Shown here in pieces: positions 2 to 17,384 of a stretch of 20,199 nucleotides of DNA (within the stretch, counting starts at the first letter, position 1; each line of letters starts with the position of its first letter). Origin of the DNA: a virus; IMG/VR virus record IMGVR_UViG_3300028548_000520, positions 1 through 20,199 of that record; one strand, given 5' to 3'. The notes below the pieces were generated by a model. It saw only the letters and a program-made list of their open reading frames with translations. It was not told the DNA's origin and ran no database searches. The translations under genes and the position numbers were made by a program.

Positions 2-1357
2 TCTGCTTTACTGGCAAGTACCACAGGGCATGAAAACGTAGCCGTAGGCATAGAATCTCAGGCAGCAACAACGACAGGTGGTCACAACACATCCGTGGGT
101 AAAGGTTCTTTAAATGCTAACACCACAGCTTCAAACAACACAGCAGTTGGTTCTGGTTCTTTAGCATTGAACACCACGGGACCGGGTAATGTTGCGGTAG
201 GGTTTAACGCACTAGATTCAAATACGACAGGAGAATACAACACAGCCTTGGGTTTTGGCGCAGCAGGACTTAATACTACAGGTGCAGGAATTGTTGCAGT
301 GGGTTCAGGTGCGTATTCAGCAGGGACTACTGGTTCACACAACATAGCAGTTGGTGGTAGTTCTTTAGGAGCTAACACTACAGGTCATTCAAATGTTGTA
401 ATGGGTCATAATGCAATGGACGCATGTACTACAGGACACTCAAATGTTGCTGTTGGATTTAATGCAGGAGGAGCTGTAACATCAGGAACAAGCAATGTTC
501 TTTTAGGAATAAACTCAGGAGATGCTATAACTACAGGTGCAGTTAATACTGCAATTGGTGATGGCTCTTTAAGTGCATTAACAGCCTCCACTGCTCCTAA
601 TGTTGCTGTTGGTGGAAATTCACTTATCACAATGACAGGTGGTGATGGTGGAAACACAGCATGTGGTTATAGAACATTAGAAGCATTAACAACTGGTTCA
701 GGCAACACAGCAGTTGGGTTGACAACAGCACTTGCTTTAACTACAGCAACTAATACTACGCTACTTGGAGTTTCCGCAGGAACAGCAATTACAACAGGTG
801 GAGATAACAATTGTCTGGGGAACGCTTCAGGGTCAGCTATAACATCAGGAGCTAATAATGTTTGTTTAGGTACTTCATCAGGTACAGCTAATAATCCGGG
901 TGGTGCAATAACTACAGGTTCAAATCAAATAGCCATAGGTAATGCTTCATCAGCAAATGCACACATACAGATTGATTGGACAGTAGCCTCTGATAAACGT
1001 GATAAAACAGATGTAACACCATTAGACATGGGATTAGATTTCATTAATAAATTAGAACCAGTAACTTATAAATGGGATAAACGTGCCAAGTACGAAGAAG
1101 GAAATACTCCTGACGGAACGCACAAAGAAAGTTGGACTGATGTTGGTTTCTTAGCACAAGATGTTGAAGAAATAGAAGCAGAATATGGTCACAAGATAGA
1201 TGATGAAACTAACTTAACAACGTACATGAGCGAAGATAAAGATTCTTATGGTCTTACTTACGCTAAGTTTGTACCAATGTTAGTTAAAGCAGTACAAGAA
1301 CTTACGGCAAAAGTCGAAGAATTAGAAAATAAACTTAATAATAAAGGAGAAAAATAA
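2..1357 (+). CDS. Tail fibre protein with beta-repeat shaft and C-terminal S74 intramolecular chaperone (5' partial)
   Basis: The reading frame is open from base 2, so the gene starts before the window; the ATG at 95 lies inside the repeat and is not the start. 451 residues are visible. The first two thirds are repeats of about 17 residues (pattern N-x-A-V-G-x-x-x-L-x-x-N-T-T-G-x-x), resembling beta-roll heads of trimeric adhesins. From about residue 330 (base 989) comes SDKRDK, matching the S-D-x-R-x-K motif of Peptidase_S74 / endosialidase chaperone domains, followed by LEPVTYKW and GFLAQDVEE, also typical of this family. The last 25 residues are a predicted coiled coil. Known for the family: the domain drives trimerisation of phage fibres, then cuts itself off before the Ser of the motif. 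Inferred role: host recognition at the virion surface. The stop overlaps the next ATG (TAATG). Confidence 0.88.
   Translation, partial: SALLASTTGHENVAVGIESQAATTTGGHNTSVGKGSLNANTTASNNTAVGSGSLALNTTGPGNVAVGFNALDSNTTGEYNTALGFGAAGLNTTGAGIVAVGSGAYSAGTTGSHNIAVGGSSLGANTTGHSNVVMGHNAMDACTTGHSNVAVGFNAGGAVTSGTSNVLLGINSGDAITTGAVNTAIGDGSLSALTASTAPNVAVGGNSLITMTGGDGGNTACGYRTLEALTTGSGNTAVGLTTALALTTATNTTLLGVSAGTAITTGGDNNCLGNASGSAITSGANNVCLGTSSGTANNPGGAITTGSNQIAIGNASSANAHIQIDWTVASDKRDKTDVTPLDMGLDFINKLEPVTYKWDKRAKYEEGNTPDGTHKESWTDVGFLAQDVEEIEAEYGHKIDDETNLTTYMSEDKDSYGLTYAKFVPMLVKAVQELTAKVEELENKLNNKGEK
35..960 (+). repeat. 51-bp-period coding tandem repeat in the tail fibre
   Basis: About 17 imperfect copies of a 17-codon unit run through the fibre shaft. 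Each starts near N-[TV]-A-[VL]-G and ends near T-T-G. Most copies are exactly 17 residues; a few are 16, 18 or 22. The conservation is at protein level and the DNA copies have drifted. It is a structural repeat, not a CRISPR. Confidence 0.85.
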
Positions 1358-4153: not shown

Positions 4154-5275
4154 ATGAAAAAATTTATTAAAAAGATTGGTAAAGGAATAAAAAAAGTTGG
4201 TAAGGCTATTGGTAAACCTTTTAAAAAATTAATGAAAACTAAAATTGGTAAAATCATAGGTACTATTGGTATGATGATGATGGGTGGTTGGATGCTAGGA
4301 GGAGCAAAAACTTTTATAGGAAGTATGTTTACTACTGGAAATGTAGGAACAGCTTTTACTAACACTATGGCTTCAATGGGTGCGGAACTTGGTACTGCAT
4401 ACAGTAGTGTAACTGGTGCTGTTAAAGGAATGTTTACAGGTGGTGGAACAAACAGCGTAGTAGCAGGATCAGAAGCAGCAGCAGCAAGAGTTATGACAGC
4501 AGCAGATGCAGCAGCAGCAGCAGGTACAACAGCCCCAACAATAGTTGGTGGAGAAACAATATTAGCACAGGCAGATGCAGCAGCAGCAGCAGAAGCAGCA
4601 AAAAACACAATTGTTAAACTTCCTGAAGCAACAAATACATCTAAAGTTACAATAGGAGCAGATGGTCTAGGCGAAAGTGTAAGTGGTCGTGTTCTTGAAG
4701 GAGCTGCAGAAACAACTAAAACTGTAGGTAAAGGACTTCCTGTTCCAGACGTTACACTTGATCCTACTCTTGTAGATGTTAGTAAAACAAATTTACTTGA
4801 TCCTACGACAGCATTTACTCCTGATGTAACAGCAGTAGGAGACATTCTAAATCCGGCAGATGCTAAGAAACTTAGTTGGGCGCAAAGAAATATACCAAGA
4901 CTTGCCGATGCTTTTGGTGAAGCAGGAAGTGTAAGTGAATTGTATGATAATACATTAGGTATCAAACCTTTTGGTAATATGCCTAATGCTCCTAAATTTG
5001 TGCAGGGTACAGACTTAGCAGAATTAAAAACAGGCTACACTTTGTTACAGAAACCTGAAGAACAATATCAACAAGGAGCTAGTGATATGTCAGGAGCATA
5101 CGCAGCATTAGATGCTAATTCACAAAGACTGTATACAGGCAACACTCCTTCAATGGCTACACTAATGGATGGCAGAACAAGCATACCTAGTCCTTCAGTT
5201 GTAGGCACAGCAGCCTACACACGACTAGCTAAGGACGCAAGTTTCTTATATGATAGTACTTTACTAGCATCATAA
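4154..5275 (+). CDS. Structural/ejection-type protein with basic amphipathic and membrane-like N-terminus
   Basis: 373 residues, preceded by AAGGAAAT. Residues 1-32 are extremely Lys-rich with hydrophobic residues every third or fourth position (MKKFIKKIGKGIKKVGKAIG), an amphipathic cationic helix. Residues 33-60 are hydrophobic with four consecutive Met, then GGWMLGG, suggesting membrane insertion. Residues 100-150 are Ala-rich and come from GCA repeats. The C-terminal third has Tyr/Gln/Asp-rich segments (residues 295-373) and no catalytic motif I know. Lying between two helical virion proteins, it may be a small internal virion protein that contacts or crosses the host membrane during DNA delivery. 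That is an inference from composition and context. Confidence 0.7.
   Translation: MKKFIKKIGKGIKKVGKAIGKPFKKLMKTKIGKIIGTIGMMMMGGWMLGGAKTFIGSMFTTGNVGTAFTNTMASMGAELGTAYSSVTGAVKGMFTGGGTNSVVAGSEAAAARVMTAADAAAAAGTTAPTIVGGETILAQADAAAAAEAAKNTIVKLPEATNTSKVTIGADGLGESVSGRVLEGAAETTKTVGKGLPVPDVTLDPTLVDVSKTNLLDPTTAFTPDVTAVGDILNPADAKKLSWAQRNIPRLADAFGEAGSVSELYDNTLGIKPFGNMPNAPKFVQGTDLAELKTGYTLLQKPEEQYQQGASDMSGAYAALDANSQRLYTGNTPSMATLMDGRTSIPSPSVVGTAAYTRLAKDASFLYDSTLLAS
4459..4603 (+). repeat. GCA trinucleotide tracts with a 22-bp exact direct repeat
   Basis: Several runs of GCA encode poly-Ala. The stretches at 4502-4523 and 4571-4592 are identical over 22 bases (a GCAGAT followed by a CAG/GCA run) and are offset by 69 bases, exactly 23 codons. 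Slippage or recombination between them would delete in frame. Confidence 0.8.
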
Positions 5276-11500: not shown

Positions 11501-12239
11501 CATTGCAGGTTTTAATTCAGCAGAAAGAGATGCTATCACTCCTACAGTAGGGAATCGTTTACTTTTTGCACAGTCTAATAATCCTTTGGTAAGATCATTA
11601 GGGCAATTCTTGTCGTGGGCACAGGCTAAAACTTCACAAACAAATGCTTTAATTACTAGAATTGAAGATGGTGATGCTGCTTTAGCACTTAGAATGTTAG
11701 CTGCCTTATCTATTTATGGAGGTGTTAGAGAGCTACAGATAGCAATGAGTCCTTCAAAATATTATGATGAGGAAAAAAATGTTCCTGAACGAGGCTCGTT
11801 TAAATATATAACTGAAGCAATGCGGTTGTCAGGAAACATAATGCCTTTTCAACTAGACAAAGCACTTTCTTTGGTAACTGGTGCAGGTGCATCTGAAGGT
11901 CTTGGTGGAGCTATTCCGTCTTTAGGATTGGTTGAAGATTTTATAAAGTTTGTACCCAATACAGCAGCTAATGTATGGGTAGAAGGCGATGGACTAGGTG
12001 TAGTAGCAGATACAATGGACCTTGTGCCTTTTGGTAAAGATTTAAAAAATATTTTATCTGAAGACAAGTTAGGTATTATAAATATCGAAGACGCTCCCCG
12101 AGGAAGAAGGAAGCGTTCAAACAGAAGAGGGTTTGCAGAAGGACACGAGGTTACAGATGTTCCGTATGTAAAAGAAAATCCCGAAGAAAGAATTAATCCT
12201 AGAACAGGCGAGCCTTACACAGCTATTTATAAAAGATAA
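8595..12239 (+). CDS. Very large putative ejected internal virion protein
   Basis: 1214 residues, the longest gene here. The ATG follows the previous stop by three bases with no clear Shine-Dalgarno sequence, suggesting coupling to the gene before. The N-terminus has a duplicated Y-S-Y-L-F motif (residues 9-13 and 54-58) separated by a Glu-rich run. Hydrophobic or glycine-rich stretches lie near 183-225 and 403-437 (GGASGAIAYSYM and WTIIGGSAALGFW), either of which could insert in a membrane. Most of the remainder is helical. Residues 988-1056 (LLFAQSNNPLVRSLGQFLSW onward) are the kind of conserved C-terminal region I associate with large phage core proteins. The end is basic (RRKRSNRRG) and finishes with NPRTGEPYTAIYKR. 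By size, order and composition it resembles the large core protein that follows DNA into the host, as T7 gp16 does; no enzymatic motif was seen. Confidence 0.7.
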   Translation: MSVNYTDEYSYLFKDNEQEILTNNNLELTEEEEEQKRKEEEEEENKTQTYNDSYSYLFNEDNNESLQAFNMQASTDEKVDAEKEPSFARKFDYGLEQEQTILGNLAQSFVAGAKALTRSGLSFEKALRESERQRQEDIFEEYPEFKNRPEDAAVTTGRIAQALVDPIPWLVPWTKIAQVGRAATVTAGAGFAVGDVALREKVLYGRVDPSSVLMAGVFGAGATYGADVIARRFTNKNTIKEIDFVDETGTTKTLASKIKDEPEFTANAAEIDAVEEVGNARLKKEMNSILDDGPENSEFLLSATAKIKAYEELDTAAKITSKLKEFKNVGVNITRKELERQATVLKIEAKKAKLSISSQTQRLMGNIDDGVAKNLEDLETIGTKITLSDGFIRKFVYEATRPIFGGASGAIAYSYMGEEDDTALMWTIIGGSAALGFWQGRVQRSKFLTKPQKEVIKDVLYQEASLTRNTWTKINTAGSHAERLNAWGGSSAMVSKLMYKQQGASLTGRVNMPVESRSTDKKVKLFNFIHNKVLNDVPPNMREDLGKLRNGFVSLDELAKKYNASELEILKNSSVKIKEFTNSLGEAVSGVGIKYKELENYGLTQMWDWGKIGADSDKFSYLLKNAWAVQKYKLDPTDIKGIEASIKSGGKQFEDEVNQVAIGLSGQRATSVFDADGNFVLPLVKNYEKSRVITDQNSRKMLQEFIVNDPQQTLAHLVVQTVPSLEFARTWGANGELLRTVRRDIHNKYNAINKGRNVDKLKQKELQHINDSMNAFFGLYGNRLTNETGHVMMAGLTALGNSTMLTRVSVPSIGDLIQPLQNSGFMPVIKSYASAAKSIKLLGGKQDSFSVEGLGIAHLNVLDSELKAINFGLDPANKIGQKIGAWNEFFFKIVGLKKITELAKARAYDAGVYRAYAISKKVTSGKKISESLQDEINALSLSTEDMRKIASFKNTRLAYDNKETKKALHIAGFNSAERDAITPTVGNRLLFAQSNNPLVRSLGQFLSWAQAKTSQTNALITRIEDGDAALALRMLAALSIYGGVRELQIAMSPSKYYDEEKNVPERGSFKYITEAMRLSGNIMPFQLDKALSLVTGAGASEGLGGAIPSLGLVEDFIKFVPNTAANVWVEGDGLGVVADTMDLVPFGKDLKNILSEDKLGIINIEDAPRGRRKRSNRRGFAEGHEVTDVPYVKENPEERINPRTGEPYTAIYKR

Positions 12240-12697
12240 TGTACAATCACTTCCTAGAACACCTTGAACTTAGAGAAGGTAACGTAGAGTACGTTTATCT
12301 TGACAGTCTAGGCAAGCTTACATGTGGTGTAGGACATCTTTTAACTCAAGACGAATGTAGTTTATATTATATAGACCAAGTTATTGATAAAGAAATAAGA
12401 AATCAATGGTTAAAAGAAGACGCACAAAAAGCATGGGATGCTGCAGCACAACAAATTCAAGACCTAAGCATAGAGGATACAGGATTTATAATTGCACTAG
12501 GCTCAGTAAACTTTCAACTAGGCACACGATGGATGAATAAATTTCCGTCAGCTTACAAAGCCCTGTCTAGTAAAGACTACGATGAAGCAATTCGTCAAGT
12601 ATCTACAGGCTCTGGTAAAGACGGACAATCTAAATGGAAAGAACAAACACCAGTTAGAGTAGAAGATTTCGTAGGCGCTATTAAAAATTTAACTTGA
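12239..12697 (+). CDS. T4-type endolysin (muramidase, GH24)
   Basis: 152 residues. It cleaves the glycan chains of peptidoglycan at the end of infection. The catalytic triad is plain: Glu13 in LELREG, Asp22 in YLDSLGK and Thr28 in LTCGVGHLL. Spacing (9 and 6 residues) equals Glu11/Asp20/Thr26 of T4 lysozyme. VNFQLGTRW at about residue 99 and KWKEQTPVRVEDFV near the end match the conserved C-terminal lobe. Length is close to T4 lysozyme (164). There is no signal peptide or anchor at the N-terminus, so export through a holin is expected, and a holin-like gene lies 172 bases downstream. The ATG overlaps the stop of the preceding gene as TAATG. Confidence 0.93.
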   Translation: MYNHFLEHLELREGNVEYVYLDSLGKLTCGVGHLLTQDECSLYYIDQVIDKEIRNQWLKEDAQKAWDAAAQQIQDLSIEDTGFIIALGSVNFQLGTRWMNKFPSAYKALSSKDYDEAIRQVSTGSGKDGQSKWKEQTPVRVEDFVGAIKNLT

Positions 12698-12721: not shown

Positions 12722-12872
12722 GATATTATATCTAGAAGATCAATTAGAAGCATGTTACAGACAATACTGTTTACATCAAGTAAGACAAGACATGCCCTTT
12801 ATGACTTTAGATAATTTTAGAGATATGTTTGAAGATTTAATGGAAGTAATATATAAGGACGAAGAAGTATGA
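12720..12872 (+). CDS. 50-residue acidic phage protein, unknown function
   Basis: ATG at 12720 with GGGGAG five to ten bases upstream; it ends by a 4-base ATGA overlap with the holin-like gene. The sequence begins MILYLEDQLEACYRQYC and ends DLMEVIYKDEEV. It has two Cys (12 and 17), is helical and acidic, and has no membrane segment. I recall short proteins of this look (E-x-Q-L-E-A-C-Y-R, then F-R-D-[ML]-[FY]-E-x-L-M-E) near lysis genes in marine phages, without known function. The 4-base overlap suggests coupled translation with the holin; a regulatory or antiholin role is speculation. Confidence 0.7.
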   Translation: MILYLEDQLEACYRQYCLHQVRQDMPFMTLDNFRDMFEDLMEVIYKDEEV

Positions 12873-13348
12873 AACTAGGTGGAATATTAACAAGTGTAAT
12901 TGGGGCTGTTGCTCCTACGCTAGGTACTGCTTTAGGTGGACCAATGGGTGGAATGGCTGCGAAAATGATAGCCGAAGTGTTGGGTGTTCCTAACACACCA
13001 AAAGCTATAGAAAAAGCTATGGCTGAAGCAACCCCTGAACAAATGTTAGAGCTTAAAAAAACTGAACAAGCTTTTGAATTACAAATGAAAGAGCTTGAAG
13101 TAGATGTGTTTGCGTTAGAAACAGCAGACATACAAGATGCGAGAGGAAAGTTTAGTAAAGACTGGACTGCTCGTATTATAGGTGTTCTTGTTGTGGGTGG
13201 ATTTATGGGTTATATATTTTTAGTGACTCTTCAACCTCCAGAACAGAACTCAGAAGCATTAATCAATCTAGTACTAGGTTACTTAGGTGGTCTAGCTAGT
13301 GCAATTATAAGTTTTTATTTTGGGGCATCACACAAACAAGACTCATGA
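12869..13348 (+). CDS. Holin-like membrane protein
   Basis: 159 residues. A glycine/alanine-rich hydrophobic N-terminus (residues 1-39, with GTALGGPMGGMAAK) is followed by an amphipathic helical section. Two clear transmembrane helices lie at about 101-121 (IIGVLVVGGFMGYIFLVTL) and 131-152 (LINLVLGYLGGLASAIISFY), ending in the FGAS-basic tail common in phage holins. The overall pattern (LGG-rich start, ATPEQ-x-x-x-LKK, D-A-R before the membrane helices) is that of the three-helix holin family found in gene transfer agents and many proteobacterial phages. It would form the inner-membrane lesions that release the downstream-acting endolysin. It starts within the ATGA overlap with the 50-residue gene and ends in an ATGA overlap with the next gene. 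Confidence 0.75.
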   Translation: MKLGGILTSVIGAVAPTLGTALGGPMGGMAAKMIAEVLGVPNTPKAIEKAMAEATPEQMLELKKTEQAFELQMKELEVDVFALETADIQDARGKFSKDWTARIIGVLVVGGFMGYIFLVTLQPPEQNSEALINLVLGYLGGLASAIISFYFGASHKQDS

Positions 13349-13696: not shown

Positions 13697-14749
13697 ATGA
13701 AAAAATTATTAGGCACAATAGTTTTAGGTTTATTAAGCATGTCTGCATTTACTGTAGAACAAACAGGTACAGGGTGTGCTAATGGTACACAATATTGTGA
13801 GAACAATACGTTAGATACTACTAACGAAACAACTACAACTAATACCAATACAAATAATAATACCAATACGAATACCAATACAAACAATAATACAAACGTC
13901 AATACTAATACAAATAATAATACAAATGTAAACAGCAATACTAACGCTAATACAAATGTAAATAATAATACGAGTACTAATAGCAATACCAATGCTAATA
14001 CAAATGTAAACAGTAATACTTCGGATGCAACTTCTAACAATACAAACTCTAATACAAATGTTAATAGTTCTACCAGTACCAACAACTCGACAGTTAATCA
14101 AACTGTAAACAATACAAGTAGCAATACAAACAATAACAATTCCGTATCCTCAAATACAAACAGCAACACCAATACAAATAACTCTACCTCCGATTCCAAT
14201 GTCAAAAGTAATAACACGAATAGTAATACCAATAACAACAATTCTGTATCTGATAGTACTAATCGAAATATTAATGAGTCTAACTCTACCCAAACTGTAA
14301 ATCAAAACGTAACTACAAAAGCTCCTCCTGCTAGTGCTATTGCACCAAGCATCATGAGTTACTCGCAAGACCTTTGTACTGTTGGACGTTCAGGAGCTTA
14401 TCAAGGACAAGTCTTTGGTTTTTCTACAGGTGGTACAGTTATTGACCAGAACTGTGAGCGTTTAAAACTTTCCAAGTATTTATATGATACAGGCATGAAG
14501 GTTGCTAGTGTATCTATCTTATGTCAAGACTCCAGAGTTTTTCAAGCTATGGAAATGGCAGGAACTCCTTGTCCTTGGATGGGTAAAGTTGGTAAAGAAG
14601 CATCCTTAGGTTGGAAAGCTAACAAAGAAGAAAGACCTGACTTTGAAAAAGTTAAAAAGAAATATGTAAAGTCTTGTAAACGTACAAGAAATACAAAGGG
14701 TAAATTAAAATCAAAGAGTACATGTGTTAAAGAATTTATTAATAGCTAG
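13697..14749 (+). CDS. Secreted Asn/Thr-rich repeat protein with Cys-containing C-terminal domain
   Basis: 350 residues, with GGAG seven bases before the ATG. Residues 1-18 are a Sec-type signal peptide (MKKLLGTIVLGLLSMSAF), so the protein should leave the cytoplasm. Residues 36-207 are low complexity: Asn at nearly every second position alternating with Thr, Ser or Val (NTNVNSNTNANTNVNN). Residues 208-350 form a conserved-looking domain with six Cys (227, 253, 276, 292, 327, 343), including DLCTVGRSGAYQGQVFGFS and NCERLKLSKYLYDTGMKVAS, ending in a Lys-rich tail. I recall this C-terminal domain from uncharacterised marine phage proteins. The function is unknown. Its 3' end overlaps the next secreted protein by 26 bases. 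Confidence 0.8.
   Translation: MKKLLGTIVLGLLSMSAFTVEQTGTGCANGTQYCENNTLDTTNETTTTNTNTNNNTNTNTNTNNNTNVNTNTNNNTNVNSNTNANTNVNNNTSTNSNTNANTNVNSNTSDATSNNTNSNTNVNSSTSTNNSTVNQTVNNTSSNTNNNNSVSSNTNSNTNTNNSTSDSNVKSNNTNSNTNNNNSVSDSTNRNINESNSTQTVNQNVTTKAPPASAIAPSIMSYSQDLCTVGRSGAYQGQVFGFSTGGTVIDQNCERLKLSKYLYDTGMKVASVSILCQDSRVFQAMEMAGTPCPWMGKVGKEASLGWKANKEERPDFEKVKKKYVKSCKRTRNTKGKLKSKSTCVKEFINS
13802..14317 (+). repeat. AAT-ACN low-complexity coding repeat
   Basis: About 170 codons of imperfect AAT-ACA / AAT-ACC / AAT-AAT repeats encode the alternating Asn tract. Units of about 10-14 residues around NTNVN recur, for example near 13895, 13923, 13955 and 14003. The tract is poor in G and slippage-prone. Confidence 0.8.
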
Positions 14750-16928
14750 TCTTTTCTTCCTAGCGTCAACAGTCCAGTCTTCGTATGGCTATCAAGACAA
14801 TCAAAGTCTTATAGACTTAACAGGTGTATCAGGTACAACAAATCTCGGTGCTTCTGATGATGGAGTATCGGGTGCATTCAACCTAGACTTTACGTTTGAT
14901 TACTACGGGCAAGAGTTTACACAAGCAAGAGTAGCTACTAATGGTTGCTTACACTTTAAAACTTCAGGAGCTTACTGCAACGACTTTACTCCTGACCCTA
15001 TATCAGGACAACACACCTACACTATGTATCCTTTTTGGACAGACCTTATAAGGGATAATGGGTCTTCGGTACTTGCTAAAAGCTACTCAGACAAGACAGT
15101 CTTTGGGTGGTACGACATGAAAGAATATGGTCGTAACAATACCAACAACAGCTTTGAAGTTATCTTGTGGGGCAATGACACATTTGAATATCGGTACGGA
15201 GCGTTAGATATAGAAAAACATGATGTGCTAATAGGTGAGATAGGAAGCAGTACTTCAGAATCATATCAGTACTTTTTTCATGACCAATGTAGTACAGGAA
15301 CAACTAATTTATCTGGCTGTGTTAGTAGCACTTGGAACAACGCAGATATAAATACAACCCTAGAGAATGGTGGTTCTTTATTAGGTGTAGGAACAGGTAA
15401 CTCTATAGACTGTAGTGACCCACTTAATAATTCAAGTTGTTCAGGTTATGCTTCTGCATACTTGAGTCAAGAGTGTGGATTAACACAATTGCATAGCGAA
15501 GAATGTCCTAACTATTGGGATGCCTATGACGATTTACAATGCGATGAGAACCCACAGTATGCTCCGTTCTGTCCAAGTTACAGACACGAAGATAACATTG
15601 CATACTATAGTGAAGAAGAAGATTATGGTTATACCGAAGAAGACATGTGGTATGACGAAGAGTATGACGAGTGGTTAGACCCTAACGACCCATGCTATGA
15701 GAACAGGTGTGAAGGATTCACAGACGCAGATTGGTACGCACTTGATGCTGAACAGTTTGGTCAGGAGCAGGTAGACGAATGGTTCGGAACTGATATAGCT
15801 TTTGGGGATGATGGTATGGTAGATTTTGAATCTACACCTATGATTTCCTACGAAGACTTAGATGTCTTAATGGATGTTTGGGACACAGAACAAGAACATT
15901 ATCAGATGGCTACGTATGACATGCTACCTATGGATACAACTGTAATGGCACATGAATTAATAATAAGAGAGGAAATAGAAAATGAAATTGTATATGAAGA
16001 AAATGAAAGAGAAGTCTTTGAAACTATGGAAGAACTTGAAGAGTGGTTTGAAGAAGAAACGCTTGAAGCTGAAGAAAGTATTGAAGAAATACTGGCAGTT
16101 GTTAACGAAGAAACTGAAGAGTCTATTCGTGAAGAAACCCGTGAAGAGGAAGTACACGAAGAAAACGAAAGTGTAGTTGAAGAATTGTTTGCGGAGGAAG
16201 ATGAGAGTAGACCCGATGACGAGCGTAAAAGTTCTGTCCGAGTGTCTGCTTTAGACATTATAGCCGGTACAATTAGAACAGCTTCTAATAGTGTTAGTTC
16301 CTCTAGCTACACAAGTACTAGTTCAAATAGCTTAAGTTCCTCTACGGGCTCGTATGGAGCTTCTAGTGGTACTTCTGGGGGTGGTGTAAGTACTTCTAAT
16401 TCTCCCAGTATGTCTGACCAAATATCCTCTGCCAACATCCAGACTAATCAGGTTTTATCAATGAGTGTTGGAGGAAGTTCTTCTGTTGGAGGTTCATCCT
16501 CATTTAGTATTACACCGATGCCTACACTTGACGATTCTCCACAGGTAGTAATGGCAGATGTACAGGTTCAAGACATGCAAGGTGAGATTAATACAGCAGT
16601 TTCAGGAGTCATGACAGCCTCTGAAGCTGACCAAGTAGCTGATAAGATAATTGCTAACAATATCAAAGAGCAACAGGAAGAAGCTGAACAAGAACAGGAA
16701 GATACAGGTGAGTACGGAGATAGGTCAACGCTTGTTGCCTATATAGGATACGTTGCAGGGTTTAATAGCTATAGAGATGCTCAGATACCTCAGCAAGAAA
16801 CGTGGTATGAACCTCGTGCAATTTACGCAGGTGTGACTATCAATGATAACACACAGGCTTTTTACGGATTAGCAGGTGCTAGTCTTAATACGTTAGGTAG
16901 CATGATAAGTATGCAACCAAATCTGTAA
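14724..16928 (+). CDS. Secreted nidogen-like-domain protein with Cys-rich and Glu-rich regions
   Basis: 734 residues from a GTG start at 14724, the first codon that gives a full signal peptide (MLKNLLIASLFFLASTVQS, cleavage near residue 19-22). Residues about 45-190 resemble a nidogen-like (NIDO) domain: FNLDFTFDYYGQEFTQARVA, NGCLHF, YPFWTDL, VFGWYDM and NSFEVILWGNDTFEYRYG appear in the usual order. Residues 230-330 hold about ten Cys within an acidic, Tyr-rich stretch. Residues 410-500 are an almost pure Glu-rich helix. Residues 503-600 are Ser/Gly-rich after VSALDIIAGTIRTASNS. Residues 668-734 form a compact tail with YIGYVAGF and ETWYEPRAIY. NIDO domains occur in extracellular adhesive proteins, so a role outside the inner membrane is inferred. 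The 26-base overlap with the previous gene implies co-expression. Confidence 0.75.
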   Translation: MLKNLLIASLFFLASTVQSSYGYQDNQSLIDLTGVSGTTNLGASDDGVSGAFNLDFTFDYYGQEFTQARVATNGCLHFKTSGAYCNDFTPDPISGQHTYTMYPFWTDLIRDNGSSVLAKSYSDKTVFGWYDMKEYGRNNTNNSFEVILWGNDTFEYRYGALDIEKHDVLIGEIGSSTSESYQYFFHDQCSTGTTNLSGCVSSTWNNADINTTLENGGSLLGVGTGNSIDCSDPLNNSSCSGYASAYLSQECGLTQLHSEECPNYWDAYDDLQCDENPQYAPFCPSYRHEDNIAYYSEEEDYGYTEEDMWYDEEYDEWLDPNDPCYENRCEGFTDADWYALDAEQFGQEQVDEWFGTDIAFGDDGMVDFESTPMISYEDLDVLMDVWDTEQEHYQMATYDMLPMDTTVMAHELIIREEIENEIVYEENEREVFETMEELEEWFEEETLEAEESIEEILAVVNEETEESIREETREEEVHEENESVVEELFAEEDESRPDDERKSSVRVSALDIIAGTIRTASNSVSSSSYTSTSSNSLSSSTGSYGASSGTSGGGVSTSNSPSMSDQISSANIQTNQVLSMSVGGSSSVGGSSSFSITPMPTLDDSPQVVMADVQVQDMQGEINTAVSGVMTASEADQVADKIIANNIKEQQEEAEQEQEDTGEYGDRSTLVAYIGYVAGFNSYRDAQIPQQETWYEPRAIYAGVTINDNTQAFYGLAGASLNTLGSMISMQPNL

Positions 16929-17014
16929 TGAAAGATTTATTAATAGACTTTATTATTTACACAATCTATTGTATTGGATGGTTAAAAATAATTTTAGTTA
17001 CAATTGGAGAATAG
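16928..17014 (+). CDS. 28-residue membrane peptide
   Basis: The ATG at 16928 overlaps the stop of the nidogen-like gene (TAATG) and the frame ends at TAG 17012-17014, just before the next ATG at 17016. The sequence starts MKDLLIDFIIYTIYCIGWLK and ends IILVTIGE. It is mostly hydrophobic with one Lys in the middle. The neat packing between two genes favours a real gene; nothing points to a function. Confidence 0.5.
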   Translation: MKDLLIDFIIYTIYCIGWLKIILVTIGE

Positions 17015-17015
17015 T

Positions 17016-17384
17016 ATGGAATGGTTTGAAAATAAAACAACACAGATAATAGCTTTGGTGGGTATCGTAGGTACGTTGGCAGGGTTTGGGTACACAGGTG
17101 CTACCTATGTGAACCGGTTAGAGAACCTAGAGGCACAAATTGGTGGGATAGGTGATACAGAGAATGCTCAACAGATTATAGAAGAAAGGTTTGTGGGTAT
17201 TGAAACTTCTGTAGAGTACATTAATAAAAGTATTGATGGTGGAATTAATCCTTCTCTAAATGTGATGGCTGAAAATGCTAATGGCATGGGGAAAGATATT
17301 GTAGCATTACAAAAAGAAATAGAGTACCTACAAGAAAGTATAGATACTCTTAAAGATGATAATAAAAATCCTTTATCTAATTAG
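17016..17384 (+). CDS. Membrane-anchored coiled-coil protein at the end of the plus-strand block
   Basis: 122 residues. I choose the ATG at 17016 (MEWFENK) over a TTG at 17004 because GGAG lies six bases before it. Residues 9-30 are a membrane helix (TQIIALVGIVGTLAGFGYTG). The remainder alternates coiled-coil stretches (YVNRLENLEAQIGG; IVALQKEIEYLQESIDTLKD) with a Gly/Asn-rich hinge. The layout fits a protein anchored in the inner membrane with its coil in the periplasm, as in inner-membrane spanins, but no Rz-specific motif is present and no outer-membrane lipoprotein partner is visible. It may belong functionally to the secreted cassette before it. Its 3' end overlaps the opposing 77-residue gene by 8 bases. 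Confidence 0.65.
   Translation: MEWFENKTTQIIALVGIVGTLAGFGYTGATYVNRLENLEAQIGGIGDTENAQQIIEERFVGIETSVEYINKSIDGGINPSLNVMAENANGMGKDIVALQKEIEYLQESIDTLKDDNKNPLSN

What the first reader, a model, noticed from the sequence alone, without database searches (positions are those of the whole stretch)
13697..17384. Four-gene phage cassette aimed at the host envelope, placed after the lysis genes
Two adjoining genes each begin with a clear Sec signal peptide, overlap by 26 bases, and are followed by a 28-residue membrane peptide (TAATG overlap) and a membrane-anchored coiled coil. Virion proteins normally have no signal peptides, so these products should reach the periplasm or surface before lysis. Possible roles are a surface or periplasmic filament, superinfection exclusion, a spanin-like outer-membrane disruption system, or a structure that decorates released particles or debris. 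The signal peptides and overlaps are seen directly; the joint role is inference.
Basis: partly seen in the sequence, partly recalled or inferred. Interest (0 to 1): 0.75.

Follow-up and report, generated by a model that had tools for sequence, protein, structure and literature searches.

The report
Conserved secreted envelope module of marine phages
Many ocean phages, including ones that infect the very abundant SAR11 bacteria, carry an undescribed three-gene unit, usually beside their cell-bursting genes, that appears to export two proteins and anchor a partner in the inner membrane, which suggests that they remodel the host's surface late in infection, although the exact role is unproven.

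Summary
Gene A (13697-14749) and gene B (14724-16928) both start with Sec-type signal peptides and overlap by 26 bases. A membrane-anchored coiled coil, D (17016-17384), follows. The 28-residue peptide C is real but almost never conserved, so this is a three-gene module, not four. Among 90 non-redundant relatives with enough sequence, B follows A in 89 and a D-type gene ending in 'NPL' follows in 87. The phages are unrelated: podoviruses, a T7 relative, T4-like myophages, roseophages. A is SP + Asn/Thr-rich linker + a conserved four-cysteine domain. B is SP + exchangeable beta-sandwich head (RemA-adhesin-like here, CBM-like elsewhere) + long, very acidic disordered stretch + conserved C-terminal motif. 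The head has moved between phages independently of the rest. Lysis genes lie nearby in 34 of 48 cases, but 15 loci also carry a genuine Rz/Rz1-type spanin pair, so A-B-D is not simply the spanin. It is not curli either: no CsgG. Best reading: a late, Sec-exported, inner-membrane-tethered adhesin complex that engages the host's own envelope (receptor masking, superinfection exclusion or debris protection). The architecture is well supported; the role is inference.

The parts
13697..14749 (+). Gene A: secreted protein, 350 aa. Signal peptide about 13697-13756; Asn/Thr/Ser-rich low-complexity linker about 13808-14320; conserved Cys domain about 14357-14660 (D-C...D-x-N-C-E-R-x-K...L-C-Q-D...A-G-T-P-C-P)
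   Evidence: 52 sequences; invariant C20, C46, C69, C85, numbered from window base 14318; phrog_20531, unknown function, E 3.4e-13; AF2 mean pLDDT 75, hairpin plus helices
14724..16928 (+). Gene B: secreted protein, 734 aa, net charge -114. Signal peptide about 14724-14789; beta-sandwich head about 14811-15293; acidic disordered stretch about 15621-16238; Ser-rich linker; conserved C-terminal motif (WYEPxxIY...DN...QPNL) about 16701-16925
   Evidence: head resembles chain 8gl6_D 'RemA', E 5e-10; AF2 head mostly pLDDT 80-93, the rest low; C-terminal motif homologous to pelagiphage-type B, hhalign probability 94%, E 1.7e-7
16928..17014 (+). Peptide C: 28-aa hydrophobic peptide between B and D; not conserved, probably dispensable
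   Evidence: a similar peptide only in L088
17016..17384 (+). Gene D: inner-membrane protein, 122 aa; transmembrane segment about 17046-17102, coiled coil, C-terminal NPL tag at 17367-17375
   Evidence: NPL-ending D accompanies A-B in 87 of 90 non-redundant loci
12239..12697 (+). Endolysin (Phage_lysozyme), genomic context
   Evidence: PF00959 E 2.5e-6
12869..13348 (+). Membrane protein of phrog_1544, holin-like by position and transmembrane segments, genomic context; also found directly after D in other loci
   Evidence: phrog_1544 E 1.1e-24; synteny

Best explanation
A-B-D encodes a late, Sec-exported, inner-membrane-tethered adhesin complex acting on the infected cell's own envelope. D sits in the inner membrane (N-in) with a coiled coil in the periplasm and presents an invariant C-terminal NPL tag, which I infer is gripped by the conserved Cys domain of A and/or the conserved C-terminus of B. 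B carries an exchangeable lectin-like beta-sandwich head on a long, acidic, flexible tether; A adds an Asn/Thr-rich spacer. The most likely use is to occupy surface glycans or receptors of the dying host and its membrane fragments. That would keep out competing phages and stop progeny being lost on debris, with expression timed together with lysis. Shown by sequence: conserved synteny, signal-peptide character, NPL tag, head swapping, co-location with lysis genes. Inferred: the A/B-D contact, the ligand of the head, and the biological purpose.
For: Co-occurrence: B in 89/90 and NPL-ending D in 87/90 non-redundant loci; NPL-type endings are otherwise very rare (135 of 3846 ORFs of 60-220 aa end this way, only 9 of them not D hits, 3 of those TM/coiled-coil genes beside A). 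Signal-peptide character of A and B versus background. The head of window-type B resembles a gliding-adhesin-family protein (8gl6_D; [quoted passage not shown] pelagiphage-type heads are CBM_4_9-like (weak, E 0.009). Head swapping: S28-C10 versus HTVC033P, Baldr and HTVC202P share 64-65% in the head but 34-38% in A, 25-31% in the B C-terminus and 31-35% in D; HTVC023P versus HTVC033P share 72% in A and 76% in D but 34% in the head. Several head classes in 119 loci. Lysis genes within about 3 kb in 34/48. Coexistence with spanins argues for a job other than outer-membrane disruption.
Against: No ligand, expression or localisation data. Window-type heads are conserved among themselves, less variable than expected of a fast-evolving recognition domain. 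There is no evidence for contact between D and A or B beyond co-occurrence. About 30% of tested cassettes have no recognised lysis gene close by, although the seeds undercount (CRP-810 has an annotated lysozyme right after D). The fold search of the whole B model against the PDB gave nothing significant.
Confidence: 0.35

Rival explanations
1. A-B-D is an auxiliary outer-membrane lysis system: D acts as an i-spanin-like anchor and A/B as the periplasmic or outer-membrane partners that help break or fuse the outer membrane.
For: D has i-spanin architecture (N-terminal TM plus periplasmic coiled coil) and weak, repeated similarity to the Rz-like profile phrog_739 (not specific: the control also rings in all 14 genomes). 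The cassette lies among endolysin and holin-like genes. In a T7 relative (L004) it sits between a holin-like gene and TerL, as Rz/Rz1 do in T7. No lipoprotein gene was found near the cassette in most loci, with the T7 control recovered. In CRP-207 and two relatives a small lipoprotein with A-like sequence precedes A.
Against: Fifteen loci carry a genuine Rz-like i-spanin plus o-spanin lipoprotein next to A-B-D, matching phrog_739 and phrog_812 in the three loci tested. A and B have no lipobox. A, B and D are about 1200 aa in all, far larger than spanins.
Confidence: 0.22
2. The module builds a phage-coded surface filament or adhesive coat that clumps infected cells or captures neighbours (the 'sibling capture' idea proposed for pelagiphage curli).
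For: Secreted Asn/Thr-rich repeat protein plus adhesin-like head. Pelagiphages are already known to carry curli genes (PMC9599517, PMC7029224). HTVC008M has CsgG but no A, whereas Mosig has A-B-D but no CsgG.
Against: No CsgG in any A-B-D record tested; no curlin repeat match. The linker is short (about 40 aa) in most pelagiphages, so it is not obviously a fibre subunit. No outer-membrane exporter is visible in the cassette.
Confidence: 0.15
3. Lysis-timing sensor like T4 T/RI: periplasmic A/B bind the periplasmic part of D and set or delay lysis in response to an envelope signal such as superinfection.
For: Membrane protein with periplasmic coiled coil plus secreted Cys-stabilised helical protein, encoded beside endolysin and holin-like genes.
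Against: No sequence or fold match to T, RI or RIII was found. Separate holin-like genes are usually present, so D need not be the holin. Resemblance is from memory only.
Confidence: 0.12
4. A and B are particle-associated proteins (decorations or tail appendages) that happen to have signal-like N-termini.
For: They lie downstream of internal virion and tail genes in the window; carbohydrate-binding-type domains are common on virions.
Against: Consistent Sec-type signal peptides across highly divergent homologues; fixed partnership with an inner-membrane protein; cassette positions vary between phages.
Confidence: 0.08

Closest known systems
Two-component spanins (Rz/Rz1; phrog_739 + phrog_812)
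   Same: Inner-membrane N-in coiled-coil protein, exported partner, usually among lysis genes; same slot before TerL as T7 18.5/18.7 in the T7 relative L004
   Different: No outer-membrane lipoprotein, much larger, two secreted proteins, and true spanins coexist in 15 loci
Pelagiphage curli / type VIII secretion genes (CsgG/CsgF/CsgA-B; PMC9599517, PMC7029224, PMC9004378)
   Same: Phage-coded secreted, Asn-rich proteins acting at the envelope of SAR11 hosts that lack them
   Different: No CsgG/CsgF, no curlin repeats, has an inner-membrane NPL protein; not found in the same record
T5 Llp / Cor-type superinfection-exclusion lipoproteins (PMC9586334)
   Same: Working analogy only: exported phage protein acting on host surface receptors
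   Different: Not lipoproteins, three genes, no sequence similarity found, placed with late genes (Llp is expressed early)
RemA/RemZ gliding-adhesin family of Flavobacterium (8gl6_D)
   Same: N-terminal beta-sandwich head of window-type B (E 5e-10 over about 145 residues)
   Different: Rest of B unrelated; only the head matched
phrog_20531
   Same: Gene A belongs here (E 3.4e-13)
   Different: Family of unknown function; no system described

Membership tests
Two-component spanin | i-spanin: N-terminal TM and periplasmic coiled coil | tested here: met
   D sequence and alignment; phrog_739 only weak, E 0.005
Two-component spanin | o-spanin: outer-membrane lipoprotein with lipobox, embedded, overlapping or adjacent | tested here: not met
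   Lipoprotein scan finds none in the window, T7 18.7 recovered as control; A and B have no lipobox
Two-component spanin | It is the spanin of the phage (no other spanin pair present) | tested here: not met
   Genuine i/o-spanin pairs beside A-B-D in 15 loci, e.g. L022, L028, L025, L123
Curli / type VIII secretion | CsgG outer-membrane pore | tested here: not met
   PF03783 absent from 27 A-B-D or control records, present in HTVC008M
Curli / type VIII secretion | Curlin repeats in the secreted subunit | tested here: not met
   No Pfam family at E 0.1 for A
Superinfection-exclusion lipoprotein (Llp, Cor) | Small outer-membrane lipoprotein | tested here: not met
   No lipobox in A or B; no NCBIfam match for B and none relevant for A and D
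Superinfection-exclusion system | Blocks infection by a second phage | not testable with these tools
   Needs expression and infection assays
RemA-like adhesin | N-terminal beta-sandwich domain | tested here: met
   hmmsearch E 5.3e-10 over profile 15-160
RemA-like adhesin | T9SS C-terminal domain and lectin repeats | tested here: not met
   Only the head aligns to 8gl6_D
T4 T/RI lysis-inhibition pair | Sequence or fold similarity to T or RI, and lysis-inhibition phenotype | tested here: inconclusive
   No PHROG, PDB-sequence or PDB-fold match for A; phenotype not testable
Virion structural protein | Present in purified particles | not testable with these tools
   Signal peptides argue against

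The most novel reading that the evidence does not exclude
A previously undescribed, ocean-wide phage system: an inner-membrane NPL-tagged coiled coil tethers two secreted proteins, one with a plug-in adhesin head, so that infected cells and their debris are coated or masked from within shortly before lysis. It would be a functional class separate from holins, endolysins, spanins, curli and known exclusion proteins.
Probability: 0.35. Interest if true: 0.8.

Novelty: categorically new. Interest (0 to 1): 0.62.

Why it matters
SAR11 and its phages are among the most abundant biological entities in the sea. A widespread envelope-targeting module in those phages, shared across unrelated phage types and undescribed in the literature searched, would say how they manage competition, release or progeny loss in very dilute water. 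The invariant NPL tag and the exchangeable head make it directly testable. It also corrects an easy misreading: a coiled-coil membrane gene beside lysis genes would otherwise be annotated as a spanin.

Tried and rejected
Spanin replacement: looked attractive from D and the T7-like slot, then weakened when Rz/Rz1-type pairs were found beside the cassette. Curli: rejected. Defence or toxin-antitoxin: no meaningful PADLOC or NCBIfam match, only coiled-coil noise. PF03245 search: one sub-threshold hit inside a long ORF, no use. phrog_739 genome search is not specific, as all 14 control genomes ring. Direct tblastn of B, or of its C-terminus, against cultured phages: nothing; the relationship appeared only through synteny and profile comparison. 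Fold search of A and of the whole B model against the PDB: nothing significant; against BFVD A matches only uncharacterised phage proteins. A weak A-like domain in Achromobacter phage phiAxp-2 was not pursued. A genome-contig scan with B found nothing; with A it found 14 loci in marine MAG/SAG contigs, and the four inspected (L114, L116, L119, L123) look like phage sequence. My first lipobox pattern was too strict and missed real o-spanins; it was loosened.
Full report
CHECKING THE OBSERVATION. A (13697-14749) and B (GTG 14724-16928) overlap by 26 bases. The peptide C begins in a TAATG overlap at 16928. D ends at 17384. For D, the ATG at 17016 is preferred over the TTG at 17004, because a GGAG lies six bases upstream and homologues begin MEWF/MDWF. 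Upstream lie an endolysin (PF00959) and a phrog_1544 membrane protein. SignalP was not available; a simple rule scored 113/118 A and 47/49 B homologues as signal-peptide-like, against 245 of 1077 other ORFs of at least 100 aa. The N-termini are divergent in sequence but constant in character.

HOW CONSERVED IS IT. tblastn of A found only about ten cultured phages, mostly pelagiphages, by its C-terminal domain; B found none. IMG/VR, however, gave hundreds of tblastn matches for A (466 stretches; some may reflect the low-complexity repeat), of which the best 80 loci were kept and all contain the A C-terminal domain. A second query from HTVC023P gave 80 more. After removing duplicates and contigs ending too soon, 90 loci could be tested: 89 have a long ORF right after A, and 87 have a TM/coiled-coil ORF ending in NPL plus 0-5 residues, two of these on the opposite strand. 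The three exceptions appear to have the motif a little further from the end. NPL endings are otherwise rare: of 135 such ORFs among 3846, only 9 are not D-family hits, and 3 of those 9 are coiled-coil membrane genes beside A. The peptide C is not conserved.

A PARALOGUE SHARPENS THE POINT. Pelagiphages HTVC010P, HTVC103P and HTVC106P lack A and carry a D-like gene ending NGKNY or similar. In L126, L127, L129, L178 and L180 both types occur: the non-NPL type between A and B and the NPL type after B. The NPL tag therefore tracks the A-B pair, which suggests it is a docking tag for A or B. This is inference.

ANATOMY. A: signal peptide, Asn/Thr-rich linker (about 170 residues here, about 40 in many pelagiphages), then a domain with four invariant cysteines and a LCQD...AGTPCP signature (52-sequence alignment). 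AlphaFold2 gives a hairpin plus a helical part (mean pLDDT 75) with no PDB fold match. B: signal peptide, beta-sandwich head (pLDDT mostly 80-93 over residues about 30-190), then mostly disordered, very acidic sequence (net -84 to -169 in window-type, -46 to -77 in the seven closest pelagiphage-type homologues). The window-type head matches the PDB chain 8gl6_D named RemA (E 5e-10); [quoted passage not shown] Pelagiphage heads are CBM-like at best (E 0.009). Although the heads are unrelated, the C-terminal motifs of the two B types are homologous (hhalign 94%, E 1.7e-7).

HEAD SWAPPING. Between the T7-like phage S28-C10 and HTVC033P, Baldr or HTVC202P the head is 64-65% identical, while A (34-38%), the B C-terminus (25-31%) and D (31-35%) are not. 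Between HTVC023P and HTVC033P the reverse holds: A 72%, D 76%, head 34%. The head thus travels as a module, as recognition domains do. In 119 loci the heads fall into classes of 51, 43 and 19 plus small ones.

GENOMIC SETTING. In 34 of 48 loci with enough flank, an endolysin, holin-like or spanin gene lies within about 3 kb. This suggested a spanin role, and the slot in the T7-like L004 (before TerL) resembles that of T7 18.5/18.7. The test went the other way: 15 loci carry a real overlapping i-spanin/o-spanin pair next to A-B-D, including a T4-like phage (L123), and the three pairs checked match phrog_739 and phrog_812. A-B-D therefore is not simply the spanin. It is also not curli: CsgG is absent from every A-B-D record tested and present in HTVC008M, which lacks A.

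MECHANISM. Shown: conserved three-gene unit, export signals, inner-membrane partner with an invariant tag, exchangeable head, frequent late/lysis neighbourhood, coexistence with true spanins. Inferred: D holds A/B through the NPL tag; B's head binds a host surface ligand; the complex masks receptors on the infected cell and later on debris, or otherwise excludes rivals. T5 Llp (PMC9586334) shows that phages block their own receptor with an exported protein, but Llp is an early lipoprotein and not a relative. An auxiliary outer-membrane lysis role remains the strongest rival. In three phages (CRP-207, CRP-810 and a spring-water phage, L010) a small lipoprotein with A-like sequence precedes A, which keeps an outer-membrane link for the A domain open.

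NOVELTY. Gene A belongs to phrog_20531 (unknown function); no description of the module was found in the open-access literature searched. Subscription papers were not covered. 'Categorically new' refers to the module as a unit that fails the tests for spanins, curli and known exclusion lipoproteins; its function could still turn out to be of a known kind. Everything here is computational.

Noticed in passing
L066:5647-6015, L067:6634-7002, L072:4721-5089: In one phage type D lies on the opposite strand to A and B, immediately after B, still with its NPL tag: a small inversion that would separate D from A-B transcription.
   Followed up: no
L009:1725-1940, L010:886-1101, L098 about 4771-5031: Small lipoproteins (lipobox LLAGC / LVAAC / LLSAC) precede A in two roseophages and a spring-water phage; those of CRP-207 and L010 share the A-domain signature.
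   Followed up: partly
L096:25223-25585, L093:21142-21507, L097:11706-12083: D-family paralogue ending NGKNY or similar (phrog_20984) in pelagiphages without A-B; no o-spanin-like lipoprotein was found in the HTVC010P and HTVC106P records, so what disrupts their outer membrane is unknown.
   Followed up: partly
L022:3464-3859 and similar: A family (phrog_10198, 'RFGGDMDRNEVEIDLNKFM...AWFGLY') directly upstream of A in many loci looks like a holin-type membrane protein but is listed as unknown function.
   Followed up: no
L025:4284-4877: A methyltransferase-like gene is inserted between B and D.
   Followed up: no
L002 (HTVC115P gp46) and L093 (HTVC103P gp34): Pelagiphages carry an annotated toxin-activating lysine-acyltransferase (HlyC-like) gene; in HTVC115P it lies a few genes after the cassette.
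   Followed up: no
window 2-1357: Tail-fibre-like protein with YadA-head-type repeats and what looks like an S74-type C-terminal chaperone, cut by the window edge.
   Followed up: no
L056:3211-3477, L040:292-561, L045:3971-4240: An 88-89 aa lipoprotein (SCASVGAVI...) occurs between B and D or upstream of A in some loci.
   Followed up: no
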